A stretch of 64,000 bases of DNA, from positions 13,500,822-13,564,821 of the forward strand of contig CAIIXF020000008.1 of the NCBI GenBank assembly GCA_903813345.2, given 5' to 3'. Below, piece by piece: positions 37,001 to 61,000 of the stretch (its first letter is position 1; every line of letters begins with the position of its first letter). The stretch comes from Owenia fusiformis (taxonomy: Eukaryota > Annelida > Polychaeta > Sabellida > Oweniidae). The position numbers and the translations under genes were made by a program. The notes beneath the pieces were generated by a model. It had not been told where the DNA came from, did not search any database, and was given only the letters and a program-made list of their open reading frames with translations.

Positions 37001-40000
37001 ATGGAATACAGTACATTGAAGTGCACTTGTACTAAAACATTAAGTGCATACATACAGTAAGTGTATATGTACTCATATCTTTTAAGTGCATGTTTACTAC
37101 TGTACTTACCAATCGCTGAGAAAGTTGTCTATTTGCCATAATTTCTTTTTCTAATTGTCTCTCTTTCTCAGCCAACTTTGATCGAAGCTGCAAAAGTTAG
37201 AGTCAAATTCGTTAAATCTTTAATGCATTATCAGACTATCACATTACAGATGGCAGAGGCTTTGGTCAAATTAGATATTTACTCAGAGTCCATCTAATGA
37301 AAGTTTACCATATCCAAGTGCATCATTTGGTTTTAAATTGAGATTTGATAAAGGCCGGTGGCTACCTTATCTTTTTAATACATCTATTTTAAACAAGCCA
37401 TATTTCAACTGTATTCAGATTGAATATGATACAGGACCGTAATATTACCATATCCCCATGTTCCCTCTTCAAGTTTATTAACAAAGTTGGACAGGCAGAA
37501 TGACAGACACGATAGAATAGCAACCAATTGTAAATACAATGGATTCCGAAATACGTACCTGATCTACATCACTAGACCCAGAGCCAGCCTGGAAGTACAA
37601 TAGGCATTAAATAATGCATACTTACACCAGGAAGATCAATTTGAAATGAAACTTTAAAAACTTGAAATCATAATTTGCTATTTAATTATGTAAGGATTCT
37701 TGAAACAAATAAGTGTTAAAATAGTTTATTACCAAATTTTTGGGAATATCAATGTTTCAATATATCAATATTTATCGTCTAACTATTTCTATTCACACAA
37801 GTAATAAAAAAAATGTTTCGTGCTATACTGGGTCAGTAATACAAGACACAACAACAACAGCAATAATGACAAAGCAAGCCTGATGTGATGTGATATGTAA
37901 AGCACACTTTAGTGATCACAACATAGAGGAATTCACTTTACTGTGAGATGAATTCAACCCAACTGCTCCATTTAAAGGATTTGAGGATACAGAAAAATTC
38001 CCCCTAGCACAAATGTAGGAGGTGTGTTAAGAACACTAGTTCCCTCCCAAATTGATAGAGGCAGTGTTCTCCCAAAAGTTCTTCAGTCGGGGTAAATTTT
38101 TCATTTACAAGTGGGTGCAAGTCCTTCTAAATCACGAGAGGGTGCAGAAGTGGGTGGCAGATCACTAGGGTAGAATATCTTGGTCCCGATCTTGGTTTAG
38201 AGTACCAGCACCATCCATTAGACAGAATATGGTGCAAATGATAAATATAGATGCAATTTAGAACCGAGTATTGTGGTTTAAAGTGATTTCCACTGTGTTG
38301 TATTCACTTCTTGTGTTCGATCTTAGCAAATGCAAAATAAAATTTCATGGTGGTCCTGCACTTCCATGTTTCATCTCATATTCCTCATATTTCAACAATT
38401 GACCATCATCATATTTTATATTAAGGGACCACGCCACAATGTCAATGTTATTTTTGCGAAATTAAAAGGATTTGACTTCCCTCCCTATCTTTGTTATCAT
38501 CACTTATGGACATTGTAATTACATTATTATTCCCATTACAATTTTTTCGTAGCTTCACAAAATTGGGTGTTTACCCCTCACAAAAACATCATTTTCGCAC
38601 AAAATGTCACATTGACATTTGATGTGGCCCTTTAGGGAGAGGAATTACCGCGATACATGAGCAAGCTATGTGAGTCTACCTTGTCGACTGTGTCTATGAT
38701 CTCCCAGTCGCAATGCGTCAAGTTTGCCAGAGTCGAGTAGTCCTAGTGAAAGCAGATAGATGGCAGAGGTGTAGCATGAGCTGTTGTAGTAAAGTAACAC
38801 ACCCACAAAACTGTGCTTTTGTATTTAAGTAACATACCCCCTAAACTTCTGTGTATCATACTTTTTAAATTTAATCTGCAACATAGGGTCAAATCCTATG
38901 CCAAGGACTGCTGTGAAAAAGTCACTTCAACATTGTTTTAAATGGTATAGTGAGTGATAAAGAAAGGCAGAATCTAGAGCTTAAGCACAGATGTACAGAA
39001 ATACAAAGATCTTCCTGTACAAAATGGAGTTTATCAAGCGGTATGTTACTTTTTATGTGAGTTAAGTAAAGGTGAAGGACATCTACAAATATGGGGAGTG
39101 TTATTATGCAAAATGTAAAAATAAGTGATTATTCAAAGAGCATAATTTTTTGATACAAGTCATGATTTTAATGATTATGAATAAACAATTAGCTGATGAT
39201 ATAGCCATGCCCCTTTAAAAGCATATAATCATTACAAAATAATCAAAATATATTGCGTTTCTGCCAAATGAGACCTTTTCTGAAATTTTCTAATGTGACA
39301 GATAAGCCTTAAATATTAGAGTTGGGTCAGTCAGTTGGCTTTGAAATAAAATGATATCCCCTAATAATACAAGGGAATCTATACTATTGATACAAAAAAA
39401 CGCACAAAACTGAAGGGCAAAAACTGAAAATTTTACGAAACTATGACCGACCCTCCTCTATTAATAAATATCCACCACCATATTACAAGAGTGATTCAAA
39501 GCTAGCAGCCACAGATGAATATGATCATACAAAGCTAGCAGCTAACTGTTGTTTTGTATAAAATACCTTTGTTTTCTGGCTTAGCTCATTTTGTAGGTTT
39601 TTAACTAGATCTTGTTCAGCTTTAAGTGAATCCTGTCCTATTTTTACAGTGGAGTTAAGGCGAACATTTTGTGTCCCTAACTCCTTGGAAGTTTTCCGTT
39701 CTTCTGCAAGTTCTCCCTTTAATTGCTCTATGAGCTACAAGATTACAGAAATGGGAAAATTAGAAAAAATACAAAATTTAAAATGCCATGGAAGAGGGTT
39801 TGCCAAATATGGAACCCTTTTGTTTTGGTTACATTTATATCAAAATGTAACTAAATGAACAACTTGGCTACAAAAATTAAAGAAAACTATTAATTCACTA
39901 TATTAGTTTCTTCTGAATTCCATGGCATTTCAATATCACAAAAAAGAAAGATGGGAAAATGTTAGCTTAAATATTACTACTTTAGTGATCTTGTTACAAA

Positions 40001-43000
40001 TCATCTAAAATGCATTCTAGTCATCATCTAACAGTATAAATACTCAAATTTCACTCTAAGGTTGTATCATTAGTATAGACTAAGTTTCTAAGGATAACAG
40101 GGTGTCCATTAAGTTTTAATCTTGTGAATTTTGGATATTGTCAGAACATGACATTATATATTACAAAAAAGAAATTTGAAATATTATACTTATTTACTTA
40201 TTGGACACCCTTATATATTCATTGAGTGTTCCAGTACAACACACATTATCATGTCACCTGTAACTTGCATCATTAATAGACTTTGATACAAACCGTCCTT
40301 TCCAAAAATAAAAACTTTCAAACTTTGAGATTTAAAGTAAAGAAGGTTTGTATGAAAATCAATTATTCATGGTACAAGTTCAAGGTCATTTGAGACTGGG
40401 CAATTTTAGGTACAAGGCACTAGAAAAATGTCAACATATCATAATGGTCATTATTGTCATGAAGTACATAAAATATTAATTCACTGATAGGCTATCACAA
40501 TATCAGTTCTGTACCAAAGCTCCTTGTGCCCACTTATACACTCTAAATTATATTTGTAAATGCAATGTATTTGAAAAATGCCTCATTTTCTCGATTTCTG
40601 AAGACTATGGACTTCATCATATAACCGCCCCCCTTTCTCTATTTCTATGTGACAATATGACCATTATGACATCAAAGTATTCACTAAAGGAGGTACTAGA
40701 CTCCCACAAACCTTCAATAGATCAGAATTGTCTACTGGTCGTGCATCCACTGTATCTATAGATTGACTGGACTGTAGTTCATGTTTCTCAGACTGTTGAA
40801 GTTCACCTTGTAACCTCTCAATTTTTTGTTCCATCTGAAATAAGATAATTTAATGTAAGGAAATGTAGAATTGAGAAAGTTATGTACGGATATACCTCCG
40901 AACAGTTATTTCATAGAAGATTGAGGGGACTAAATGCATGTTAGAAATAGCTAGTTGAACCAACTTTAAGAATATGCTAACTGTATTAGCTCTTACAATT
41001 TCAAATAATTATCAATACTTTGATATAAATAACAAATTGTTACAATGTTAATCAGACAAATAGTTCTTGAGTTATTGCAATGCTATTAGAATTCAATTTT
41101 TGTTTTCAAATCAATTTACAAAAAAGTTACAAATATAAGTCCCATAATCTGTTGTTTCCTTAGCAACAGATACAGGTATATTACCAAAAGTTAATACATC
41201 TACATTAATGACTTACATTTTACCCAATTAGCAAAATATGAAAGAAGAAACCTGATATACATGTTTTTGAATGTAACCCCAATGTTATTGGTATTGAGTA
41301 TTTGAGTATTGCACTTGTATTTGTATGATTATCAAATCTATGTGAACGTCCATTGAATGAGTATTTTAGTGAAAGTCCATTGAATGAGTATTTTTGTGAA
41401 TGCCCATTAAATGAGTGTTTTTGTGAAAGTCCATTGAACAAGTATTTTAGTGAAAGCCCATTGAATGAGTATTTTTGTGAATGCCCATTAAATGAGTATT
41501 TTAGTTAATGCCCATTAAATGAGTATCTTAGTGAAAGCCCATTGAATGAGTATTTTAGTGAATGGCCATTAAATGAGTATTTTAGTGAATGCTAATTGAA
41601 GGAGTATTTTAGTGAATGCCCATTAAATGAGTATTTTAGCGAATGCTCACCAATAGAGTATTTGATAAAAGGTTAATTGTATTTGAGTGAAAACCAATTG
41701 TATGAATCTTTGAGTAAAGGTCAAATGGATGAATAAATAAGTGAAAGACCAGGGTGTAAATGTCAAATGGATGAATATTTGAGTGAAAGCCCAGGATGAA
41801 AGTTCCTTATAAGCCAATATACACACACACAGACACACACTCAAACAAAATATGCAACTCGAGAAATCTCTATTTTGACAGTTTTAATGAAACACGTAAT
41901 GCATTAGTGCAGTATTTTTAAACATTGTAAATGTGTAGTATAAGGTAAAAATGACCCCTGATATGAAAAAAGTTAGAATGCAGAAAAAAATGTGAGAGCA
42001 TGCAATGAACCTAAAACCATGTAGTGTAGTGATACATTAAAGCAAGAGTCTCATGCAAGCCAAACATTCTTTGGGACTACCTTCTCAACTGTGCCTTTCA
42101 GGGCATTATATGTTAACTCCATCTCCTACAATACATATTAGTAGAAAAGCTAGCAATTCCTCTAAAGAACATCAATGCAGCAAAATATTAAAGTCACATG
42201 ATATTTTGGTCATATACATATTCCATATATTGAGGAGACATCTTTTAGGAATGATTCACATCCATGTGAATGTGTAATGTGAACTTACAGGATGTCCCCA
42301 AATATCTGGATTAAAAAACTGCAAATGTTTCATCAGGTTAATACGAGACACTCTGTTTTTAACTATAATGTTGTTAATATATAGAACCTAGTATCATACT
42401 CAAGTCTACCATAACCAACCTGAACTATCTCATCAATATGGTTGACTACGAGACAATAGAGTATACTTAAACAGGCTAAAAATATGACAATAACATGCGA
42501 TTAGGGAGATGTATTCATGTTTGTTGGTCTAATGAACAGCTTCTGATGCTGGAGTAAAATACACTTTTACATCTTATCTGGCAGACAATGAATATTCTAA
42601 GTCATGCAACCATGCAAGCATGTTAGCCATGCAAGCATGTTAGCCATGCAAACAGTTTTATACAAATAAACAGAGGCACATGCATTATTTCATTGCCTCA
42701 TTATGTATCATTTTGTTATAGACAGGAAAAAACTGATGCTCAAAATATAAGAGACGACTGGAGATAAATATTATATATACCTCGGTATTGGAATTTTTTA
42801 GCTGTTCACGTAATTGTTTCACTTCTGTTTCAGTCTGCAAAAAATGATATAAACACAATTTAATGGTGGGAAAATATGGTACTCGTATGGAATTTAATGG
42901 TAGGGGATAAATACAATATTCTCTATTGGTATTAACTGTGAAGACTTTTAAGTGATATTCATCACACATTGGGAAGGGTTAAATACCATATCCATTTTTA

Positions 43001-46000
43001 ATAGGACAGAATAAATAAATACTGTAAAACACTTTCAAACTGCTACACTCTCATTTTGCCTCTCGTTTTTGGATAAAACAAATGATGAATAATAGAGGTA
43101 AAAATATGATTTTTTCGTGAATATGACCAGGAATAAATGTGATATTCACCTCTTGCTGCTGAGACTGTGATAGTTGCAATCGTTCTTGCCACTTGGCCTC
43201 CTCTTGTTCTACACTGGTCTGTAGTTTATTCAGGATAGACTCAGTATTGGCAAGTACTGACTTGTAGTTCTCTACCTGTGATTGAAGCTTCTCTTCATTT
43301 TCTTTGGCTGCTGAGAGTTCCTTCTCCAAGGCGGGATCCTAAGTTGAGATATAAGTTATGATATAGATGTATAAATCATAACGATTTAATTCATGATACA
43401 GATTAGTCTAAGTCATGATAGTGATGTTTCGCTGGAGAGTTTAAATCAATATATTGTTCATTAAATAAGTTTTTAAAGGATATTTATACAACTGAATGCA
43501 AATAACATCTATGAATAATATTACCTTGACAACAGAAGTCTTTGTTACATAATGGGTGATTTCTTTCTCAAATACTTTCATCCATTCTTCATGTGTCTAA
43601 AAAAACGAAACAGAGATCCATTTATTCACATGTACATTTTCTCCTGGAGGGACTCACTTATTACATGTAAATAGACAGGGCATTCAATAAGTATTGCCCC
43701 ACTTATGACAATGGTTACCATAGTAACCATAACTTTGTCAATTCTACATTGATTGTCAGAAAAGTTTGACAGGATAAGGTCAGATATATGTTTCTTATGT
43801 TGTGAAAGTTTCATGAAGAAAAAAGCAAGAAAGAAAAGTTATAGGAAAATTAGCAATACATGTTTGAAAACTTCAGAGGAATCTGTTTCTTCAATTACAT
43901 ATACAGTATATTCTTTGTCCATATTTTCTTGAATGAAATGAATAAAATTCACTTCGGTCAAGGAGCGAGTATGAACTTATGAGGTACACAATTGGAAACA
44001 CAATATGTCACACTGACCTTTATTGTTTCTGTGATCTTGATTTGTGGGAAGATCTTAAGAAGTGTTTCCTGAGCGGAGACCTCCTGGCTGGCTATTTGCT
44101 CCACACTGTCCGCCTGAAACAAATATTTGAAACATATCAATTTTATCAAGGTATTATCTACTGCACAGGAAATATTAAGTTAATCTGAAACATAAAATCA
44201 AATCCTATGCTAAGGACTCATGTGAAACAAGGCACAGATGTGAACAATATCGTACCTAAAACACAGCAGTGTGACAGTGAAGAATTTGGGACGGAAAATC
44301 CAAAATGGCCACCTTAAAATTTAAACTAATCAGTTCTTAACTTTGATATGTAGAAACATACCTGAAATTTCAGATGAATCCGTCAAATGGTTTGGCTGGA
44401 AACCTGTAGACAAGTCTTGAAAGTGAAGATTTTAGGACAGAAAATCCAAAATGGCCATCTTAAAATTAACCCAGAATGCCCAAAAACTAATCAGTTGTTA
44501 ACTTTGATACGTAGAAACATCCCTGTAAATTTCAAATGAATCCGTCAAATGGTTTGGCTGGAAACCTGTAGACAAGTCTTGAAAGTGAAGATTTTAGGAC
44601 GGAAAATCCAAAATGGCCACCTTAAAATTTACCCAGAATGCCCAAAAACTAATCAGTTCTTAACTTTGATACATAGAAACATTCCTGAAAATTTCAGATG
44701 AATCTGTCAAATGGTTTGGCTGAAAACCTGTAGACAAGCTGAAAAGTGAGACGCCGCCCGTCAAGCTGACTACAATATCGTACCTCTTGTTAGGTACGAT
44801 AAAAATCACTCCACCCTGGTGGGAATCGAACACACAACCTCCCGATTACATGTCAGATGCTCTCTTTTATGGAGGTATCATTTACTGTACAGGAAATATT
44901 AAGTTTCTTTCATGTATACATTACTGAGATTGCCATTGCTTCATAACCATGTTGATCAACTAAGGGAAATAACACCAAGTTTTACTCTTATCATTATGCT
45001 CTGTTCATTTGCTTTAATCAGATTGGACAAAAATGTTTCTTTGGTAATTATGGTGCCTGAACTTATATATAACTTGATGTACAGAAAACTTGAATCTTAG
45101 TGGAACTGGTTTTTACACAAACATTTAAAGTATTTAAACTCATTTGAACATTTTCTGATAGAATTCATTGTAGCTTATTACTGAATTTAAAGTACTAGCT
45201 AAACCTTTATTCATAATCAAACACACTCATTCTAACACAAATGAACTGATTATACTAAATAAAAATAATAAGAATAAATGAAATCTTTTTACGTTGGAAC
45301 CACAACACGCTGAAGTCTACATGAGAGTATTTATAACTCTACACTACATTGCCCAATACATACATACCTTTTGATGTTTCTTTTTCTTCTGTTTTGCATT
45401 AAAGCATTAAGAATATCATAAATGAGATCTATATTGCCATTTGCATTTATTCAAGAATGTAATTATAATGAACATGTATAACTTGCTATAACTCTATATT
45501 CAGGAAATATCAATCCGAGTAATAGGTTTTTTTAATACTATTATATGGGGGTATTGATAGCACATATTTCATGTTTTCAAATGTTGCACATATTTGAAGG
45601 AGTTGCTCTATTATATACTGGCTACAAACCTTGGACTGTTTAACTGCAACTTGTACTTTCTCTTCAGCTACCTTCTCTGCAGCAGCAACTGCTTCCATTG
45701 CTTTCCAGTTCTTCTCTCTTAATTCCTGCAATGTATCACCATTATTAGTGCTGTTATGCTCGATATAAAATAATGGCAGATGAAGATGCCCACCTCTTAC
45801 CGCAAATACTAAATGCAAGTCATGACAAGGCATTCATTTTTGCCTCTCACTGAATTTAAAGTACTCTGGACCAAATAGTACAGGTTGCATCTAAATTATC
45901 ATGAATTATATAATTTTAATATTCTTCTATATCACTCATGAACTACGTTCAGAGTGAAAACTAGACAACAGCAACGCCAAAGCATAGCAAATCCCATCAA

Positions 46001-49000
46001 ACAGCCATGGCTGGCATTTTTACAAACTAAGTATATAGCAAAAATGGCAGCCATTTTTCAAAATGGCCACCTTCTACCAAAAGTGTCATTAGACAGTGTG
46101 CCATGCTTATAGTATTCACATACCAAATATGAATAAAATCGCTCTCCACAACATTTCGAGATACAGTAAAATAAGTTAAAATGGCGGCCATTTTGAAAAT
46201 CGGCTTAGGAGCAGAACTTCTACCCCCATAGGGTATATGTATACAGAATATGAACAAATCGGGCCAACAGTTTTTGAGGTATTGCCCGGACTGACGGATG
46301 GACATACAGACAGACGTACAGATGGAAGCATTCCCTATATCCCTATGGGATAATAAAAATAAATGATTAACTCCACATATGCGCAATTGCAGATCTATTT
46401 CAGATTTATAACTCACATCATTTTTCTTTCTTTGGGCAGCTAGTTCCTCTTGAAGTTTGGAAACTTCCTGGCTATCCCCAGATGTAACGGATTCCTGGGT
46501 TTGCAGACTATTGTATTTTTCCTGCAATTCCTGGAAACACATATGAAATAAGAGTTATGCCTAAGTCACATTTGATCTCCAGCAGCCATACTGTGACTGT
46601 AGCTTCCCAAAATCAAGAGAAATAGACAGCATTATAACCAGTGCGATGCTAGATTTTCTATACCGATTTTGTGAAGCTACAGCTGCCATAGAGCAAATGT
46701 GACTGAGGCTTCAATCATTTGTTGAGGTTCATGTGGCTTTGCAAATCCATATTACAAACCTTATTATTGTGGATATCTATAAGTCTGTCCAAAAGTGGGT
46801 TAATGGGTTTAGATTAAATTGTATCTAAAAGGAGAACCAAGTCCCCATTGCATTGATCGATACAGACTCAGGACTAGTCATTCAATTTTAACCAATTATA
46901 ACAAGAGATCAAAATAAACCCAGAAAATATAGGCTTACTAATCAAATTTGCTTCCCTATTACATTTATATCAAAACTTATTCTATATATGTGTGATATAA
47001 ACCCATAAAGAACCATTTTATAACTTATCTAGTTGACAATGATTAAAACAAACAGTCAACCAAAAATGCCAAGTCAAGAATTTTCATATCAAACAGAGGT
47101 TTGTTATTCCCATCAGGCCAGTTTGAAAAAGCATTATGGGAGAAATAAGCACTCTTTGTAAAAAATATGCAAGTTTTAATGGTTAAAATTGAAATACAAA
47201 TTCTAACCAGCTGAGTCTAACATGACACACTACAATACAACTAAAAAAGCCAAATATAGCTAAAGGGTTGAATGAATAAGAGTCAATAGAAAGTGATTAA
47301 ATAAAGCAAGGATATCGGCTCTGATATCACAAGGTGTAAATCATTCATACAATCACAATTTACTGTATTCCAGTATTCAAGGTAGGCAGTTTCATCCATT
47401 TCCATTTAAAAGCTAATAAGCAGCCCTGGTAAAGGACAGAGGAGAGTTGGGGGTCAATGGAAGTTTTGTGAGGCATGTTAGAACTCAAGTTTTGCAATAT
47501 ATTCACAGTATTCTACCCAGTATGTTTTTTCTCAAGTAGCTGCAAAATTCTCATTTTAAATTGGTCAAATATGACATTTTTCATGACATTTGGAAGTATC
47601 TGCAAATGAGCCTCAATAATGGAGAGATCACTGAATAATATTGTTGGTGAATAACGTCCTAAGATTCTCAACTTAGTGGATTTATTCACCAACATGCAGT
47701 CAACTATAAACACCATAACTAATATATCAAATAACAAATAAATATAACCCGAACAAAAGCAGGGTGGCCATTAGATGTGCTGTATTGTATTTAATCCATA
47801 TCTCTTTTCTTTGTTTCTTTTTATAAATGTGCCAAATGTTAATGAAAATCAGTGCAAGATTCATGACTAGTGACCACCATTTTCCATTCTCCATGAACAC
47901 AGGATTACTTAACTCCATCCATATGAAAATAATGTAACTTTGTGTTCTAGGAGATACACTGCCAATCTATATCAGTATCATATGGTCCCATACTTGAACT
48001 TACCATATGATACCATTATTACAAATTGGGTGTGTATTGTGCAACCATGTTAACAATAAAACCCCTTCATTCCATGCATAGAAACTGGAATAGAGATGTC
48101 AGTAGGGAGTCTTACATCGTAAGAATTCTTGGTTGAGTCGAGAGCCTCACGTAAGGCAGAAACTTGGGACACCTTAGTGGTCAGTTCTAACTGGAGAACA
48201 GTCATTTCCTCCGCAAATGTATCACATTTAGCAACTATCTTGGCTGTTTCTTTTAGTTTGCTGACCAGCTCCTACATGCAGAAAACTTACTCCCTCAAAT
48301 ATCACAACACCAAGCATCAGCCGAACAAGGCAGACATTTTTTAAACTCAAATTATTCTGAATATTTTATTATAGATTACCTCAATAAAAATAAAGTGGTA
48401 TAAAATAATTCTTAATTCATTCTGTTACTTAGGCAACCAATATAATTCAACACTGTTGAGATGATATCAAGTCTGATGACATTTCAACATCAAATTTGAC
48501 ACCATCCGCTTGTTTGTCACTGAAATTGATGCCAATTCCCCTGCCAATTCGACGTCTTATTTGTGCTGAAATATTGGTTGGAGCTAACAGGTGTAATTTT
48601 CACACCTTTTCTTTGTCTAGATTTGCCAAATCTACTCGAGTATACAAAGATGCCATAAGTATCAGAATGAGTTGTGGCAAAATTAAAAATTAAGGCTCTA
48701 CACTTTTAGGATGATGGCTTCTATGTTGGCAATATAAGAGAAGACAGGAAAAGCCGTGAAATCTTTCGAATGGAAAAAGTCTACACTATACATGGTATGC
48801 AAACAAGTCATAATCTACTAAAATATATAGAGATGAAACCATGAATGATTGCCTTTAAGAGAATAGCTGGATTGTGGGGATTGCTTTTGTTATTAGTTTG
48901 TTAGCTTTAGAAGACCCATGCGTACAATGCCACCTGATCATATCAATATAAGATATTTACATAAAATGAAATTTAGTATCATTGAAATAAGGCTCCTGCC

Positions 49001-52000
49001 TTATGTGGTATATTAAGCCTATATTTAGTGCTTGAGGGAAATCTACATTTGAGCTTAGGGTGTTATGAATTAAATATACAGGGTATCCATAAAGTCTCTT
49101 TACACTCGACACAGACTTAGTATTGTAATAGTAAAGACACTTTATGGTCACCCACATACATGTTTATGTATTGTATAGCTGTATATCGTATGAATTGCAG
49201 CATTTAAAAATAATTTCAATATAATTTCAATTACTTGGTATAAAAAATATTCATTAATCACTGAGAGCAAGATTGTAGCAAGAGCAATGGAAAGCTGCTA
49301 CACATATCGATACAAATAAAGCGTATACTCACATCATTATGGCGTTTCTGAGTTTCAACAATGGATTCTAGCTTGTCTATGGCTGCTTGTTTAGACTCTA
49401 AGTCATTTTGTAATTTGCTGACTTCCTCTGTCGCTGAACCACCATCAGCCACCTTTGACCGGAGATCCTGCATACAGAAAGTACATATGTAAATAAAAGT
49501 GTGATAAAGCATGCATAATCTTTCAATCTATCTAAATAAAGGAGAATGTTTTGGTTCACAGCTTCTGACCAAATAAGGTCTTCCTATGTCTGAAATAAAC
49601 ATTTACTTCTATTACAACACAATATAGTTTAAAATACACAATGTAAATGGATGGCTTAACTAGTAACACATTACAAGCATGCATATAAGCACACAATCAA
49701 AGTTGATTTTTGTTGCGACACTCGTAGACATAACATTTTTATGTAACACTGGCATTATTTTGTAACAAGTCAATCATAATATATCATAATAGTATATAAA
49801 ATCATTTCTATATTAAACCTCATAACATAATAATCATTGAATAGTTATGACAAAATCATAATTAATACAAGGCATTAACATGACAAAATGTCACCACCTA
49901 GTTGCTCACAATATTATGAGTTCAAACTTAAGTCAGATTTGAATTTCTGAGAACTTGTAAAGTCAAATTTGAACTTCTGAAAAGATGAAGATGATTTTGA
50001 AAAAAAGATTTGGTCAATTTGAAGCAAGTTGAAAACAGACCTTTTTGACCTTTTTGACCTTGAGAAGGTCATTAAAGGTCAAATGTCAAATCTAAAGTCA
50101 GATTTGAATTTCTGAGAACATGTAGATGATTTTGAAAAAAAAAATTAGTCAATTTGAAGCAAGTTGAAAAAAGACCTTTTTGACCTTTTTTGACCTTGAC
50201 AAGGTCATTGAAGGTCAAATCTAAAGTCATATTTGAATTTCTGAGAACATGTAGATGATTTTGAAAAAAAATTTAGTCAATTTGAATCAAGATGAAAAAA
50301 TACCTTTTTGACCTTTTTTGACATTGAGAAGGTCATTGAAGGTCAAATGTCAAATCTAAAGTCCGATTTGAATTTCTGAGAACATGTAGATGATTTTGAA
50401 AAAAAAAATTAGTCAATTTGAAGCAAGTTGAAAAAAGACCTTTTTGACCTTTTTTGACCTTGACAAGGTCATTGAAGGTCAAATGTCAAATCTAAAGACA
50501 TTATTGAATTTCTGAGAACATGTAGATGATTTTGAAAAAAAATTTAGTCAATTTGAAGCAAGATGAAAAAATACCTTTTTGACCTTTTTTGACATTGAGA
50601 AGGTCATTGAAGGTCAAATGTCAAATCTAAAGTCAGATTTGAATTTCTGAGAACATGTAGATGATTTTGAAAAAAAAATTTAGTCAATTTGAAGCAAGTT
50701 GAAAAAAGACCTTTTTGACCTTTTTTGACTTTGAGAAGGTCATTGAAGGTCAAATGTCAAATCTTAAGTCAAATCTAAAGTCAGATTTGAATTTCTGAGA
50801 ACACGTAGATGATTTTGAAAATTTTTTTTAGTCAATTTGAAGCAAGTTGAAAACAGACCTTTTTGACCTTTTTTGACCTTGAGAAGGTCATTGAAGGTCA
50901 AATGTCAAATCTTAAGTCAGATTTGAATTTCTGAGAACACGTAGATGATTTTGAAAAAAAAATTTAGTCAATTTGAAGCAAGTTGAAAACAGACCTTTTT
51001 GACCTTTTTTGACCTTGAGAAGGTCATTGAAGGTCAAATGTCAAATCTAAAGTCAGATTTGAATTTCTGAGAACATGTAGATGATTTTGAAAAAAAAATT
51101 TAGTCAATTTGAAGCAAGTTGAAAAAAGACCTTTTTGACCTTTTTTGACTTTGAGAAGGTCATTGAAGGTCAAATGTCAAATCTTAAGTCAAATCTAAAG
51201 TCAGATTTGAATTTCTGAGAACATGTAGATGATTTTGAAATTTTTTTTTAGTCAATTTGAAGCGAGTTGAAAACAGACCTTTTTGACCTTTTTTGACCTT
51301 GAGAAGGTCATTGAAGGTCAAATGTCAAATCTTAAGTCAGATTTGAATTTCTGAGAACACGTAGATGATTTTGAAAAAAAAATTTAGTCAATTTGAAGCA
51401 AGTTGAAAACAGACATTTTTGACCTTTTTTGACCTTGAGAAGGTCATTGAAGGTCAAATGTCAAATCTTAAGTCAAATCTTAACTCAGATTTGAATTTCT
51501 GAGAACACTTAGATGATTTTGAAAAAAAAATTTAGTCAATTTGAAGCAAGTTGAAAACAGACCTTTTTTGACCTTGAGAAGGTCATTGAAGGTCAAATGT
51601 CAAATCTAAAGTCAGATTTGAAGGTCAAATGTCAAATCTAAAGTCAGATTTGAATTTCTGAGAACATGTAGATGATTTTGAAAAAAAATTTAGTCAATGT
51701 GAAGCAAGTTGAAAAAAGACCTTTTTGACCTTGAGAAGGTCATTGAAGGTCAAATGTCAAATCTAAAGTCAGATTTGAACTTCTGAGAACATGTAGATGA
51801 TTTAGAAAAAAATTGAAGTCAGTCTAAACAGTATTTGTTAAGTTATAGGAAGTTGTAAGAAATTGTTACAGACGCCGGACGCCAACCGCCGGACGCCAAC
51901 CGCCGGACGCCAACCGCCGGACGCCAACCACCAACCGCCGGACGCCGTCGCAAAAAAACGGAGACCATAACAATATGTCACCACTTTTGGTGGTGACATA

Positions 52001-55000
52001 ATATCATAATCTTAGAATAACTACAGGATAATCTTAGAATAACTACAAGATAATCCTACAATAGATATAGCAAAATTGATTCTACAAAATATATTTAATG
52101 ATCCTGTAAGACCTATAGCATAATTCTAGAATAGCCACAGCACAATCTTAAAATAAATAACTAAAAGAAAAATCACTCCTATGATAGATACATAATTGCA
52201 TAATTCTAATAGAGCTATGGTATTATCTTACAATAGCTATAGCATAGGGGTGAATACATAGATACAAAGCAGTGCTGTCGTTATTACAAGCAATTATAGT
52301 TTTAGCAAGAAAGATTTGTTAGTCTTTTCTGAAACAAAAATAATTCTTTCATTGATTATCATTATACATGCCATGCATTTAGATGTGTTGCTTTGGTTGT
52401 ATAAAGCAGAGGGTTGCCAAAGTAACAGAAGCACTGGTTGCTAGCTCACTAAATTTAGGCATTAGTAACAGAACAATACACTAGTATTTGTTAATATCTG
52501 TTACCATAGTAACAGAAGTGACAGTGGTATTTATAGTTCTGATGAAGGGACAGACTCTTTACACTGGTTTTCAAAACTTGTGCAGGAGCTTTATTATAAG
52601 CAGCATCATAAGCAACAAGAACCTGAATACGTTCGACAGCAAAGCCGCCATGGCAACAGCTAAGGTTACAATACGAGAATTAATAACTAAGTGATCATAG
52701 AATCAGTTATCATGTAATTATAGTTGTCATATATACACCATCATAAATTATATAAGCCAAGAACAGAAGCAAAGGCTTTAATACATCTTTGCCATAGTGA
52801 CAGAAGCTTAATTAACACAAGCTCAGACATTACCATGGTATCCGATTCTGGTTACCAAGGTTTCATAAGCTTACATTTATAGTATCTTTCTGTTGTTCTA
52901 CTAATTTTAGAAGTACATCCATATCTTGTACTCTTTTGTTCAGTTCCTCTTGGAGATGCAACAACTGAACTTGGACATCTTGGTCCTGCTTGCCACTGAC
53001 TCCATGGGCATCTAGCTGGGCTTGCAATTCCTACAATCAATGGTTATTATGGGATATAGTGGTAATTATGGGATACGTGATAGTTATGTAGGGAGATTTG
53101 TAAATCTAACTATAATATAGAATTGATTATAGAATAGAAAAGGGAAAACTTATACAAACACTTTAAGTTAGTGAAAGAAATGAGTCAATGACAGGCTTTT
53201 GACCTCAAATGGATTGGAGTTTTCCTTATTTTAATACACGGATGCCTAATGGGTAAAATTAATGTATTGCATGATGGGAGCTTACATCCTTCTCCCTCTT
53301 GTGGTGCTCAACCTCCTCTTGTAGGGAGGCAAGTTGCTGTAAACTTTCTGACAACTGATTCTGCACAAGACCCATACCCTCAGCTGATGCCTCAGCTACT
53401 GCGAGAAACTCTGAGATTTGCTGAGACTGCTGTCGTAGTTCCTGATGAGGAAATATGAAGAAATGGGAACTTGGTTACTGTATCTACAACAACCCTTGTG
53501 CGATGACATTAACTAGTCAACTGAGTGTTCTGTTCTTGCTGAAGTATGTGTAAACGAAACATTGGGATCTTAAATCTGGCACAAGATAATATAACCCCCA
53601 GCCAACTCCCTACCCAACTAGCATCTAAGTTCAGCATTGCACTGACAAGATGTATGTGCATGCAATTTTGTTAGATACTTTGATTCTAATTAGAATAACA
53701 TTTTTAGAAGGAAAAAATCAATCATGTATAAGTTCACATTCATCTATATTATTTCTCTCTCTCTAGTTCTCAAGTATATAAGTCATAATGCAATGCAATG
53801 TAAGGGAGCCTATTCACATGCATGACCAAATTTGGTCATCTTTATTCACAACCCTTACATCATTTCTTTGTCGCTCCTCGTCCAATAAGGCATGTAAGTC
53901 TTGTATGGCGTTATTTCGGGACTCTAATTCAGCTTGGAATTCTTCATTGGGCTGGATTTCTGTTGCCTCCTGGCTTAATGCTGTCTCTGATAATTTGGTA
54001 CATTTTTCGGAAACTTCTGTGAATTTTTGTTGAATTTCCTGTGAATGAACAGAAAATTAAACCATATTTCCAAAAAGGGCAATTTGAGGTGTAATGTTGT
54101 GATATAAAGAATCAGAACTGAAGAAACTACTAGAAATTAACTTAAACTTTCTTAACTTAATACATTTAAAAAACTGCAAAGTAATGGAGCCGAAATACCC
54201 AAAATTCAAATCACGTCCTCAGTCATACAATGTCTATTCCCCATATATACAATTTAGAAATGACCCAAATATTATAAAAATTGCACTCTTGTCATGAACC
54301 TTTTCATTAACTTTTCTCTCAAAATTGCATGAAACCTCTGACATTACGTTATCCAACCAATTTATTTTGTGAGCATGCATCTGAAAACTACTCTGTATTT
54401 CTTACAATATTCTCCACTTTAGTCTGTTCTATGGTAGACTGAAGTGTTTCAATGGTTGTTGTTTTCTCCTCAAGTAAAGCCTGTAGCTCTTGCTGTTTCT
54501 CTGAGGCTGTCTTATTGTTTTCTAACTGTCGCTGGAGGTCCTATAGGTGATAACAGGTCATATTTAATTCATTGTACATTTGAAGCCAATGGATTGAATT
54601 GTGATTCCCACCATTGGAAAGCAAGAATATGACAATGAGACATTCAATTAATAATATTGGCTTCAAACTACTAATAGGTGTAAATCTCATCCAAATAACC
54701 CCCAAACTTTTTTATAATGATATGTAAATTATATTATGAGCTATATCAATAGACTTGACAGTAAACTAATCTAATATCAATATTTTATCTTAAAAACTGG
54801 AAAACTGAAAACAACAATACAGCATATGAATCGATTTGATGTGCATATTAAAAATAGAATATGATCTAAAGTTAGTGTAATGACTTTAAATGTTATAATA
54901 GTTAGTGAATTCACCATGCAAGCAGCCCTAAGCAAAGTACTGTATATTTCATAAAGCTTAGTTAGCACTACACACTTCTGAAGCTTTATATAAAACTGCA

Positions 55001-58000
55001 ATTTACTTTATAGACTGAATTTAAAATATACTGCGAAAAGTCAACTTCCACTTAGCCTAATACAAATGTATTTCATAATCAACAGATGAGTAAACGCTTT
55101 CCAATGCATCTCGAGGTCCCACTATGGGACAATAGTAAATTTTGCAACAATATATTTTGTAATACATATTGCAACACAATGAACAGAGTATATGCAATAC
55201 AGAAATTGCAAACTTGGTGGTACATATTGCAACACAATGAACAGAGGATATGCAATACAGAAATTGCAAACTTGGTGGGCCGTGCAACACATAACTGTGC
55301 ATGTACACACAAAAATTACATAAACATAACTAAAGTAGCTGTAGATTATAATGTACATAGTAACTGATTATTAAATAAAATACAATCATTTGATTGGTTA
55401 GCCTCTCTTGATTATTTGATTATCATGTACAGATTAATAGATTATCATGTACATTTTCATATATTATCATGCTCAGATTAATCAAACATTGTGACATATT
55501 ATCATATACCCGTTAATGTGTACAATTTTCCTGTTTGAAAGTTATAATGTGCAGTAAAATAGATTACTTTATGATCTTCTGATCACTCATCCTGTTAATC
55601 ATAGTTCCTGGTGCTGATTATCGTAAAAACCATGCAAAGACACATCATAAAACAGAAGATTGATAAGTAAGGTGAATTTCAAGTCACTGATAATAATTAT
55701 GATTAGATTATTCACACCTTAAATAAAGCTTACATAATAATGATGTTTGTGATGAACATAGTTAAAATGTATGGAATTCCTGATGAACTGCCATCCAAGC
55801 AAGCACAGGACCATCACACCATGCATAGAACTTATGCTATAACATCTCTTACTTCATTTGCTTTCTTAATCTCTTCCAATTCTTCTTTCAACTTATCAGC
55901 TTCACTTTGGTCTTCTTTAGAGGCCTGTAGGGCTTTGTTTAACTCAGTGATCTGATCTGTTAAGGTTTGGATCTCTGCAGTTTTGGTTTCAATCGTGGAG
56001 ACATATTCTTGTTTTTCTTGGCCAAGCTTTTCAAGTTCTTCGCTAAGTTCGTTGGTGGCATCCTTCAGGGCAGCTTCTTTGACTTCTTCTTCCAGTGCGT
56101 TTATCTTCTCATTTAGGGCTACAATGGTGCCTGCTTTTTCTTCAAAGTCTTGAGACAGCTTGCTATATTTCTCATTAACCTCTGTGTAATTTACCTCTTT
56201 CTGATTTATCAGAGCCTCTTTTTCAGATATCAGAACCTCTTTCTGAGATATCTCAGTCTCTTTTTCAGAAATCTGAGCTTGGAGCACAGATGTTTGGTCA
56301 TCATTCTTAATTGTATTAATTTGGCTAGAAAGTAAGTCAATTTCAGAATTTTTCTCTGTGATTTCTGACTTCAATGGTTCAATTTCTGACCTCAGTTGGT
56401 CAAGTTCCACAGTAACCTGCTGCAGTGCTTCGTCCTTACCCTGTACACTTTTTAATTGATCCTCTAGTTCCTATAGAAACAGAGAAAGCTCATCAATCCC
56501 ATAGTTCAATGTCATATATATTTAATGGGATTGGCTACTTTGTCAAAGATCTAAGAAGGGAAAATACAACAATGTACACTGGAGTTCAGACAATGTACAA
56601 TATGTTACAATCAGTACAATGTTTTATAACTGCTGAAATAAGACTGTGCACAATTACATTGTTAGTTGTTTAGTAACAAAACATTGAATTTTCATTTCAC
56701 AAACACCAACTGCTAACAAGCATATCAGATAGTGATCTCCTTAGCATTTAGAGCAACTGGGTGCTGTACACAGTTCAAAACCTAAATAAATAAAAAATAT
56801 GCCCCATCCTGTAGAAGATTTGTTTGAACTTGCTAAAAGTGTAACATTAAGATTTGACTAAAATTGGTGGAATTGACGACTTTGCACCACATTAGGAAAA
56901 ATCCTAGGAATATCACTATCAAATGATACACATTCAGGAAAATGTGAATGAATTATTGTCTACTGACTCATGTTTGTTTTCCACAAAAAGGAAAATGAAG
57001 CAGGCATTCCATTATATCCATGTATAAACTGCAATATAGCTCTAAACAAAATCCTGTACCTCAGTTCAATAAAAATCAATAAAACTAAAGAAAATATCAA
57101 CATTAATTGTTGTTTCTTGAACAAAATACAGCACAAGCTAATATGAACAATGAGATAAATGTAACAGTTAGGAAAGTGTATAATCTAAACTAGTGTGTAG
57201 TGCTGAAATGCATTAGTCATGCTGGGTGAGGGCCTTCATAAGACATCTCATGGTGACCATGGAAACCCCAATTTTACCACAAAAACCCAAATTTTACAGT
57301 GTTCCCAAAAACTACAATGCTTAAGAATTAAATGCTTCATGCTTATAGCGTGATTTCATGTTAATTCCAAATTCCTTACAATTGAGTGATTGATACCATT
57401 ACCACCATGAAATCTCTAGATCTGCTCATTATTATTTGTCACGGAGGTCATGTTTTTAAAATGTGAAATTCAGTAAAAATGAGTGAAATTAACAAAAAAT
57501 TAATTAAATAGCCATGAAGACAACACAATTAACTGTATGGAAATGCAAGAAAATCAAACATTTCATTCATGTTTAAGAGAGAAAACACAAGAAATAAACA
57601 TGAACTCAATGACATTTCTAGGCCTGCATGCATGGTTGCCTGATAATCAGACACAACAATGATGACACCTAAAAGGAAGAAAAGCTTACATTATTTTGCT
57701 GTTGTAAATTAGAGAATTCTGACTCCTTCAAATTAAGATCTTGCCGAAGTTTAGCTAATTCTGCAGATGTTTTTTCTGCCTCGGCTAAGGCATCCATTGC
57801 CTTCCAATTTTTACGCCGTAAATCCTAAAATGAATGACATCATTCTAACAAGGTGCAAAAACCACTAACACCATGCAAGGGTTACTAACGATTAGTCAAC
57901 AATTCAACAGACAAATAGTTAGAGAGTCAGTTAGAAAAGTTCATTAAAATTAAAGTTCATTCAAAGTAATTAAAAGAGTATACATGTGGTTATTGAATGG

Positions 58001-61000
58001 CTTAGACAGTTTAAAGCCATTTTGCAATGAAACAATAACAGCAGGAATTACTTGTTTTCCTTTTATAGCAGATTTAGATAAATAAGTTTTCTGCAATGCT
58101 ATTAATAGAAAGAACTACAATAATCATGACTAAATAGAAATGGTCGTAATAAGTTGTCTTTATTAATCAGCGATAGTATAAATTCCTAAAATGGTCAGGT
58201 GCAAGCAGGAAAGGATTGAAGATCATTTCTACGTCATGATAAAAACACAAAATGAATTCTCTATAAACACTATGTTGTCACTACTAGATATAGTAATCTA
58301 ATATCCTAGAATTGTTCAATGTAGATGTGATTTACTCACATTATTTTTCTGTTTTTGTGCTTCAAGGTCTTCACACAGTCTTCCTAATTCTTTATCTTTG
58401 TCTTGTAATCTGAAAAGGTGTGACAAAGACCCTATGTTTCATTGCTCTCTGTAAATGGTTGAAGACAAAGTATTTAAAGATTCATTTAAAATGATACTTC
58501 AAAAGTACTTGTGACTCATAAGCGATATACAAAAACATGGTCATTATACATGAGGACTTGCTTCTTGTTTCATATCGAGTTATCGGGTCTCAGCTTCAGG
58601 GAACCAAGTCGGTGACGTCAAGGTAGAACATTTCATGATTATCGTCAGTTTCGAAAAATATTCGTGAAAATGCTATGCAGATTGTCACGAGGACCTATAT
58701 TTTTATCGATTGTGCAAATATACGTGAAGAGGAATGTCAAATAAAGTTAAAATGATGTTTTCAAAACCGAACCCTGTATATTTCAATGTGGAAAAGACCA
58801 GGATGTAAAAATCTGTTCTCGGAATTTGAGCTCTTCAACACGGGAAGTGAGAATTTTGTTGTTATTCTGAACTATCGCGAATAAATCTATTGGGATGAAT
58901 TTATTTCTTTATTCTGAAATTGCCACACCATGCATGCATACAATTTTTAGTAGTTATCAAATGTGTTCAATATCTTACAATTTTTCATGTGTGTGTATAT
59001 CAACAGTGTTGGTGGGCTTGGCTGTGTCACCATTCACTGTCACTCCCTTTACAGATGGCTCTTCTGCACCCTCCCCTTGTTGTCTTTCCTGTGTAGTATG
59101 CAGCTCATCTTTAAGTGCTTTGTTCTCCTGTTTAAGTGCCTACAAGAACAAAGTGAGAATTAGTGCACCTTTAAAACTGATTGAAAAACAAGATATTGTG
59201 AGATGTGACAAGATTATGGAGTACATGAGTCAAGATATTCAATGCTTCAGATCTGAATAACAAACCCTCATAGTTAATAACTAGGGGTAGAATTCATCAT
59301 CATTGTACAATGATTGTAGTAAATTACTATGAGTAATCTTCCAAGTAAATTAACAGCTCTTTTATTCCACTTTCTGATACGTGGATTTTAACTAAATATT
59401 AATTGAACTTGATAACCACTTTAAGTTGTCTGCTACGTATATGGGGTGATCTGTTTTATCGATATTAAAGCAATTAATGACTTTCAGGGTGTCATTTTAC
59501 TATTTACCATGAGGTCTAGGTTGATCTCAGCTTTCTGTCTCTCTACATTGGACAGTTGGGTTTCAGTGGATTTCACCTTTGATTCCAAATCTATCTTTTG
59601 TCTCTCAATATCCTGAAGAAATACAAAACATGTCATTCCGAATGGTTTCCATATTTAAGATAAAATAGAGTATGGATGGAGGAGAAATTCACATTTAAAA
59701 TCATGTTTAAGATACATCTTAGTGAAAAATAAGTGTAATTCTATCCAGAGAGTCGTGAGCAAGATCAATGTCACTTTTATGAATAATATTACGCATTTAT
59801 TAAATTCTGAGCTTTTCATGTTGAAATAGCTAAGACACTGAGCACAGGTAATTAAATCAAACATTATAACAACAAACCTTGTATCTAAGTTCCAATGCTT
59901 TTGTATTATCTTCTTTATTTTTAGAGTTGGCTTCCAGACTCCTCAAACGATCCTTAAGATTTGAGATTTCATCTTCAGCAACCTTGGCTGCTTGGTCTGC
60001 ATCCTTTGCAATGCTAATATTCTTCATCTCTGCATGGCGTAGTTGTTCACTGACTTCATCCAGTTTCTTCGACAGCATTGTTGTGTCTCTCTAGATATGT
60101 ATTAAAGAATACAGATTAAAATTCTGCTCAATATTTTTGCTAATTCCATTCCATGCTTTTGCATACAATTGTATTTGTATTGAAAGTTTGTTTCTATGTC
60201 ATTCAATTGTACATCCATCCTTGGGCACCATGTTTTATTGAAAGTTGCAAGTAATAATTTCCCAATTTTGTCAAGGTCTTCCATTAGAAATGGACATAGC
60301 TAACCTGGGCCAAACAAAAGTTGGTGGTAGGCTAATTGAAGAACTTCATAGCAAAGACATTTTGTGAAAAATAACAAAAATGCTTCGATGGTCCTCGAAT
60401 TCATGTCCTTGACTTCAAATAAAAAATAAAGCAACTATGAATTGTGGGACACGAGCCTTACCTTGCTTGAATCAATCTGACGCAGTTGGTTCTCATATCC
60501 TGCAACTTTCTGCTCCAAGTTACGTTTGGCATTCTCCGATGTGTTTAGTTTGATGACGTTGCTGTTCAACTCTGTCTTTATAATCTCAAGTTGATTCTTC
60601 ATTCCAGCAAACTGAGCAGGTGAGATCTCAGAGGATCTGGAACATCACAAAGGGTTATCTTATAAATGCAAAATAGACTGAAAAGATTTTTGCTATAATT
60701 TAGCTGCTCATCTATCCTTATGATATCAGCCTTATCATATAAAAGTGAAATAAACTAAAAGTAAATACAGTACAATGCACAGATTTGAGGTGACTCTAAA
60801 TTGTGCCCAAAGCTATACTTAGTTTGTGGGCACTACTAGCATGTTCACTCAATTTGAATTCATTTTTTCCATATAAAGCAGAAAGTCAATCAAAGTTTTC
60901 ACGTGTCAATAGAAGATGGTGCAAAATCATCCACCTGTTGACAAAAAAATTACACATATTATGAAGGTCAGAGTGAACTTAACACATCTTGCTCCATGGG

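What the first reader, a model, noticed from the sequence alone, without database searches (positions are those of the whole stretch)
45630..58409. Cassette block of coiled-coil exons with lengths of 7n+3 residues
Between the conserved exon I and the KNWKAM exon S lie nine exons (J-R). All have phase-0 introns at both ends. Their lengths in residues are 45, 206, 45, 60, 52, 52, 45, 52 and 38. Eight of nine equal 3 modulo 7, so they differ by whole heptads. All begin with Asp/Glu then Leu/Ile, and most end in a polar N/D pair (KNN, QNN, RND, IN, HND, KND). Any cassette can be spliced to any other without breaking frame, and skipping changes the coil register by a fixed 3-residue step. Vertebrate RRBP1 and kinectin go almost directly from the KNN end to the KNWKAM block. 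This looks like a lineage-specific exon-duplication system for tuning rod length.
Basis: partly seen in the sequence, partly recalled or inferred. Interest (0 to 1): 0.75.

Follow-up and report, generated by a model that had tools for sequence, protein, structure and literature searches.

The report
Register-matched coil exons in RRBP1-like gene
A gene for a long rod-shaped protein related to the ER-membrane proteins RRBP1 and kinectin carries nine extra exons that look like old tandem copies of one junction, so each joins its neighbours without breaking the rod's seven-residue rhythm; whether cells use this to vary rod length is unknown.

Summary
The exons are real. On the minus strand, J–R are nine GT-AG, phase-0/0 exons of 45, 206, 45, 60, 52, 52, 45, 52 and 38 residues; 8 of 9 are 3 mod 7, against 0 of the 9 other phase-0/0 exons in my model. 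The mechanism needs correcting. Read as heptads, all nine start at c and end at b, like the flanking junctions, so the seam runs on through every junction and the odd 3 residues lie inside each cassette. All 45 skip junctions in the block keep the heptad, against 3 of 15 further along the gene and 7 of 20 in a myosin rod of the same genome. Exon J is itself a second KNWKAM exon. Cassettes L–Q share a junction-anchored tail; J, N and Q share the head of exon S; a leave-one-out profile test is not decisive. Most likely a tandem duplication from inside I to inside S made an S-head/I-tail founder whose copies changed mainly by heptads; 7n+3 is then an inherited relic, not a design. Splicing and lineage specificity could not be tested. 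New variant of a known kind.

The parts
58340..58409 (-). exon I (enters at phase 2, leaves at phase 0); tail LQDKDKELGRLCEDLEAQKQKNN ends at heptad b
   Evidence: tail resembles the nine cassette tails in total, 230 vs null 62 +- 27, 0 of 2000 shuffles reach
57690..57824 (-). cassette J, 45 aa; head is a second KNWKAM exon (14 of 22 residues identical to S head)
55853..56470 (-). cassette K, 206 aa; four internal register breaks; 21-bp and 42-bp internal repeats
54406..54540 (-). cassette L, 45 aa (15 of 45 identical to P)
53859..54038 (-). cassette M, 60 aa, the one exception (4 mod 7)
53286..53441 (-). cassette N, 52 aa (13 of 52 identical to Q; head like S)
52875..53030 (-). cassette O, 52 aa
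49333..49467 (-). cassette P, 45 aa
48116..48271 (-). cassette Q, 52 aa
46417..46530 (-). cassette R, 38 aa; of the nine tails, the one scoring highest against the exon I tail
45630..45725 (-). exon S, 32 aa, ELREKNWKAMEAVAAAEK..., starts at heptad c
37110..44113 (-). span of the downstream rod exons T-Y, used with S as within-gene controls
58979..62620 (-). span of the upstream rod exons A2-H; exon 1 (hydrophobic stretch and basic region) lies outside the window at 67972-67321 in window-continued coordinates

Best explanation
The gene encodes an ER-anchored coiled-coil rod protein of the RRBP1/kinectin kind. An ancestral exon pair I|S, joined at heptad position b|c by a phase-0 intron, underwent a tandem duplication with one breakpoint inside I and one inside S. 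That makes, in one step, a chimeric exon (S-head + I-tail) whose two ends are copies of the same splice junction: phase 0 at both ends, starting at c and ending at b. Further duplications of that exon with its intron gave the array J-R. Lengths then changed mostly by whole heptads, because other changes break the coil and because 21-bp slippage occurs. The 3-residue excess is the register offset frozen at the founder's fusion point and now sits as a break or hinge inside each cassette. In the protein the array adds up to 595 residues (about 88 nm if fully helical) to the rod without breaking the seam at any junction; loss, gain or skipping of any cassette would also leave the seam intact. Shown: exon structure, register at the exon ends, similarity of tails and of some heads, seam continuity for all skips under the matrix used. 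Inferred: the founder event, heptad-wise growth as the usual route, ER anchoring, rod extension as the effect. Not shown: that any cassette is ever skipped.
For: Exon model. Global heptad Viterbi gives c...b for 9 of 9 cassettes at switch penalties 3, 4 and 5. Exon ends scored alone: start c in 9 of 9 (14-residue windows), end b in 9 of 9 (18-residue windows); of nine control exons 2 start at c and 3 end at b. All 45 skip junctions have zero discontinuity cost (18/14-residue windows) vs 3 of 15 in S-Y, 0 of 60 for block donors with T-Y acceptors, 9% of random 7n deletions and 30% of random deletions of cassette lengths, and 7 of 20 in a myosin rod. Tails of J-R: mean pair score 21.1 vs -1.4 against 20 register-matched windows outside the block and 7.5 against 13 windows inside K; register-preserving shuffles 8.7 +- 1.6, 0 of 2000 reach. 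Tails L-Q without the last two residues: 29.3 vs 13.6 +- 2.2, 0 of 2000; a 23-residue version falls from 22.5 to 0.1 when slid by one heptad and 5.6 by two. S-head vs J 14/22; vs N, Q and R p = 0.001, 0.0085, 0.0085. I-tail vs the nine tails in sum: 0 of 2000 reach. Two separate alignments put the 7-residue shortfall of L and P near the head, but that of J, and the 14 of R, in the tail, as if several heptad-sized changes had occurred. Codon identity at 7-residue lag in K is 26 of 44, expected 16.3, p = 0.002.
Against: A leave-one-out profile test is not decisive: among all controls P ranks first, Q second, L and M fourth, O and R fifth, J sixth, N seventh. If S, I and the K pieces (relatives on my reading) are set aside, L, M, O, P, Q and R (6 of 8) lead the rest by small margins, J and N do not. 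Within the tail test J scores 8.1 and K 16.0, while one outside window (in U) reaches 16.7 and one inside K 19.5. Heads of K, L, M, O and P cannot be tied individually to S (p 0.09 to 0.71), and I-tail vs J-tail (p = 0.46) and O-tail (p = 0.11) are not significant. Of six equal-length pairs, N-O, J-L and J-P are not significant. Read alone at penalty 5, six of nine cassettes (J, K, L, N, P, Q) prefer g...b and O reads c...e; at penalties of 6 or more some cassettes take other registers. Even the native S-Y junctions have zero cost in only 1 of 6, so that control stretch is a poorer coil. No intron similarity remains between the block's introns to prove duplication at DNA level.
Confidence: 0.6

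Rival explanations
1. Regulated cassette splicing: cells include different subsets of J-R to set rod length; the common b|c seam was kept by selection because it makes every combination usable. (This can be true together with the duplication origin.)
For: All 45 skip junctions keep phase and heptad; human p180 has a splice variant lacking its decapeptide repeats (PMC8732269, passages), so the family does vary by splicing elsewhere in the protein.
Against: No transcript data; donors are not weaker than elsewhere (6.6 vs 6.8 of 9) and polypyrimidine content before J-S is similar (0.63 vs 0.68). Shared seams are expected from duplication alone.
Confidence: 0.18
2. The long rod is ancestral and vertebrates lost the block; the exons are old coil segments, not copies of the I|S junction.
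For: Most cassettes are not set apart from ordinary coil by profile; no outgroup was available to polarise gain and loss.
Against: Two KNWKAM exons, one at each end; junction-anchored tail similarity that is lost on sliding by one heptad.
Confidence: 0.16
3. Coiled-coil bias only: phase-0 introns in rods prefer polar positions, so a common register and length class come cheaply.
For: In the myosin rod phase-0 junctions also recur at f|g and g|a (4 and 4 of 10). F|G and G|H upstream of the block also lie at b|c.
Against: If only three positions were allowed, nine of nine ends at one of them still has p = 1.5e-4. Other phase-0/0 exons of the same gene have no 3 mod 7 member and downstream ends scatter; skips keep register in 45 of 45 vs 7 of 20 in myosin, though the 45 pairs share 10 donors and 10 acceptors and are not independent.
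Confidence: 0.06

Closest known systems
RRBP1 (p180) and KTN1 (kinectin), vertebrate ER rod proteins
   Same: Hydrophobic stretch then a lysine-rich region in exon 1, then a rod alignable to recalled human RRBP1: 31% over 316 columns in A2-G (E 3e-25), 31% over 288 columns in Q-W through KNWKAM (E 6e-20), 42% over 48 in X (E 1e-4).
   Different: J-P (505 residues) have no local match to the recalled human sequence at E 0.01, and KNWKAM occurs twice. Pfam PF05104 gives no hit.
Tandem duplicated exon substitution events (tropomyosins: PMC9741552, passages; Snap25 and insect Mhc: PMC2581893 and PMC2257972, search listing)
   Same: Homologous exons side by side in one gene; convergent events in human and fly are described (PMC9741552).
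   Different: Those are mutually exclusive exons. Here nine exons of differing lengths lie in series; mutual exclusion would not need a seam shared by all (inference).
Alternatively spliced short exons of vertebrate kinectin (recalled, from no call)
   Same: In-frame short exons inside the same rod.
   Different: Recalled only; exon lengths and register there were not compared.
Length-constrained coils of synaptonemal complex proteins (PMC8598163, passages)
   Same: Selection against indels inside coiled coils.
   Different: There length is conserved; here, on my reading, length has grown, mostly by heptads.

Membership tests
RRBP1/KTN1 | rod homologous to RRBP1 including the KNWKAM region | tested here: met
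   against a human sequence recalled from memory, so only as good as the recall
RRBP1/KTN1 | N-terminal membrane anchor then lysine-rich region | tested here: inconclusive
   exon 1 read by eye: hydrophobic stretch then K/R/E-rich part; no topology predictor was run
RRBP1/KTN1 | Pfam PF05104 Rib_recp_KP_reg | tested here: not met
   no hit in the own genome (where no control genome rang either) or in the N-terminal 379 residues at E <= 1; I therefore call the gene RRBP1/KTN1-like, not a ribosome receptor
RRBP1 | decapeptide ribosome-binding repeats | tested here: inconclusive
   none seen in exon 1 or among the ORFs listed between exon 1 and A2 (a filtered list of ORFs of 22 aa or more); small exons could be hidden in that 4.7-kb intron
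tandem duplicated exons | neighbouring exons similar to each other beyond coil bias | tested here: met
   tails of J-R and L-Q, heads of J/N/Q/S; not for every cassette singly, and the leave-one-out profile test is not decisive
tandem duplicated exons | alternative or mutually exclusive inclusion | not testable with these tools
   no RNA data
lineage-specific expansion | absent from related species outside the lineage | not testable with these tools

The most novel reading that the evidence does not exclude
A splice-compatible 'brick' system for coiled coils: every brick starts at heptad c and ends at b, so any of up to 512 subsets gives an unbroken seam and the cell could dial rod length, and so the distance from ER membrane to rod tip, over a range of about 88 nm by splicing.
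Probability: 0.15. Interest if true: 0.75.

Novelty: new variant of a known kind. Interest (0 to 1): 0.42.

Why it matters
It gives a simple, testable rule for how rod proteins can lengthen without breaking: duplicate across one intron at a fixed heptad position. It also turns a numerical oddity (7n+3) into a likely fossil of one duplication event, and names a gene where splicing-controlled rod length can be checked directly with long reads. [quoted passage not shown] an RRBP1-like rod gene here, if the organism is an invertebrate (not established), would bear on that.

Tried and rejected
Skip simulation over 512 subsets gave 0 of 2816 broken junctions, but the slid control gave 0 as well for shifts of 1-5 (64 for shift 6), because sliding all exons alike keeps them consistent; I discarded that control and used the cost test instead.

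Leave-one-out HMMs: not decisive, reported as against. Hidden further cassettes: an HMM of eight cassettes (K left out) against stop-to-stop ORFs of 18 aa or more in the window plus 29.7 kb upstream found its own eight, then S (E 1e-4) and I (0.3), and nothing else below E 1. Second copies of the gene: with S+U as query (E <= 0.001) and J-M as query (E <= 0.01) only the window's own locus matched; other exons were not asked for, and absence elsewhere is not proven. Similarity between the block's ten introns (I-J to R-S): none at E 1e-3, same strand; the only hit touching them is 34 bp between R-S and S-T. PDB: only A2-D was searched, best E 2.3. Pfam: only the N-terminal 379 residues, U, S and K were scanned; none of the rows shown passed its cut-off (25 of 48 shown for K). 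Literature: ten searches; among the rows listed (all found rows in 10, 20, 36 and 47, none found in 26 and 27, only the top rows in 19, 38, 39 and 53) I saw no paper on such exons in an RRBP1/KTN1 gene; the library holds open-licence papers only. Structure prediction was not run: single cassettes are short, and spliced joins are not letter-for-letter window sequence.
Full report
Observation. The gene runs on the minus strand. I rebuilt it from splice sites and open frames: exon 1 (ATG, hydrophobic stretch, basic region) at 67972-67321, beyond the window's end (sequence fetched), then A2-I, J-R, S-Y. The 26 exons join into one open frame of 1483 residues without a stop. The 3' end past exon Y was not found, and extra small exons in the 4.7-kb intron after exon 1 cannot be excluded. 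All junctions in the model are GT-AG.

Is it more than chance? Of the nine other exons that are phase 0 at both ends (F, G, S-Y) none is 3 mod 7; Fisher p = 4e-4. The eight exons with other phases were left out. The naive probability of 8 or more of 9 in one class is 9.5e-6. Since the exons look like copies, a fairer count takes only distinct lengths relative to 45: 52, 38 and 206 differ by multiples of 7, 60 does not, p = 0.01. Two automatic alignments of the eight short cassettes agree that, relative to the 52-residue exons, L and P lack seven residues near the head, J lacks seven in the tail and R fourteen in the tail, while M has eight extra, placed differently in the two. That suggests several separate heptad-sized changes; as 4 of 5 changes, p = 0.002, counted after the fact.

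What the 7n+3 means. I scored heptads with the COILS MTIDK matrix (recalled, not from a call; near-zero C, W and P values raised slightly). A global Viterbi path places all nine cassettes from c to b, with exon I ending at b and exon S starting at c; each short cassette has one internal break, K has four. This holds at switch penalties 3, 4 and 5 (M and O have two breaks at 3 and 4); at 6 and above some exons take other registers. Scored alone, without neighbours, the first 14 residues fit c best in 9 of 9 cassettes (7 of 9 with 10 residues, 9 of 9 with 8), and the last 18 fit b best in 9 of 9 (8 of 9 with 21, 9 of 9 with 28); of the nine control exons 2 start at c and 3 end at b at the 14/18 settings. 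Some margins are small (0.3 to 0.5 log units for J, L, N and Q starts in one or another setting). Whole exons read alone at penalty 5 prefer g...b in six of nine cases and c...e in one, so for single exons the internal break rests on the head residues. Those are direct: across J-S, position +2 is L/I in 10 of 10, +5 is K/Q in 10 of 10, +6 is hydrophobic or aromatic in 7 of 10; across I-R, position -2 is N in 7 of 10. That is an a-d-a|d-a seam running through the splice junction.

Consequence. For all 45 forward skips within I-S the best left and right registers agree at zero cost with 18/14-residue windows (34 and 42 of 45 with 14/10 and 21/8). Native junctions I-S agree in 10 of 10, native S-Y in only 1 of 6, skips among S-Y in 3 of 15, block donors with T-Y acceptors in 0 of 60, random 7n deletions in 9% and random deletions of cassette lengths in 30%. 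In a myosin rod gene of the same genome (found, exons joined; 15 of 16 junctions resolved, 10 of them phase 0) skips agree in 7 of 20, counted within the two halves of the model. The 45 pairs share ten donors and ten acceptors and are not independent tests.

Origin. Exon J begins with a copy of the S head (14 of 22 identical). Tails of J-R score 21.1 per pair against -1.4 with 20 register-matched windows from other exons and 7.5 with 13 windows inside K; register-preserving shuffles give 8.7 +- 1.6. J (8.1) and K (16.0) are the weakest members, and single control windows reach 16.7 (in U) and 19.5 (in K). Without the last two residues, L-Q tails score 29.3 against 13.6 +- 2.2; a 23-residue version scores 22.5, falling to 0.1 when slid by one heptad and 5.6 by two. 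Exon I's tail resembles the cassette tails in sum (230 vs 62 +- 27), R and P most by score, J (p = 0.46) and O (p = 0.11) not. N, Q and R heads resemble S singly; K, L, M, O and P heads do not. Of six equal-length pairs, N-Q and L-P beat all 2000 shuffles, O-Q has p = 0.0095, and N-O, J-L and J-P are not significant. Leave-one-out profiles do not set most cassettes apart: P ranks first, Q second, the others fourth to seventh among all controls; with S, I and the K pieces set aside six of eight lead, by small margins. The K-R heads without their first three residues are only weakly alike (29 of 2000 shuffles reach). The simplest account is a tandem duplication from inside I to inside S, giving an S-head/I-tail exon with both ends already phase 0 and in register, followed by copying and decay. 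K shows how heptads can be added: 21- and 42-bp repeats at DNA level and excess codon identity at lag 7 (26 of 44 vs 16.3 expected, p = 0.002).

Function. In human cells p180 and KTN1 fragments 29-381 and 29-400 contain the microtubule-binding domains, so binding lies towards the membrane-anchored end (PMC8732269, passages), and KTN1 anchors the EEF1B complex to the ER (PMC13231004, search listing). Extending the rod between the anchor and the C-terminal part would move distal sites outward, by up to about 88 nm for 595 residues at 0.1485 nm each. This is inference. Nothing here shows that the cassettes are optional: donor and acceptor strength are ordinary.

Family. Pfam's KP-region model was not met. 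I therefore call the gene RRBP1/KTN1-like.

Verdict. A true observation, a corrected mechanism, a likely ordinary evolutionary cause with an unusual and useful consequence.

Noticed in passing
49958-51812: Tandem satellite of about 136 bp (tgaccttgagaaggtcattgaagg...) inside the O-P intron, the longest intron of the block (3407 bp).
   Followed up: no
8133-9698, + strand: Open frame (521 aa) that by eye has C2H2 zinc-finger-like cysteines and histidines, followed by a degenerate heptapeptide repeat (ANEGQAN type; 21-bp unit, 26 copies by TRF). No family search was run on it.
   Followed up: partly
59139-59878: Junctions F|G and G|H, upstream of the block, also fall at heptad b|c, and exon G is exactly five heptads with no break, though its tail window does not resemble the cassettes (1.2).
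   Followed up: partly
56193-56407: Exon K carries in-frame 21- and 42-bp DNA repeats, visible as ISEKETEI/ISEKEALI repeats in the protein.
   Followed up: yes
3880-5765: Array of 56 bp x 33.6 copies, 94% matches.
   Followed up: no
G000:C9:28883209-28896213 (L006, L007): In a myosin rod gene the phase-0 introns recur at two heptad positions (f|g four and g|a four of ten), hinting at a general bias worth a survey.
   Followed up: partly
61165-61540 and 59140-59507 (introns C-D and G-H): The two introns share a 72-bp stretch at 89% identity, perhaps a dispersed repeat.
   Followed up: no
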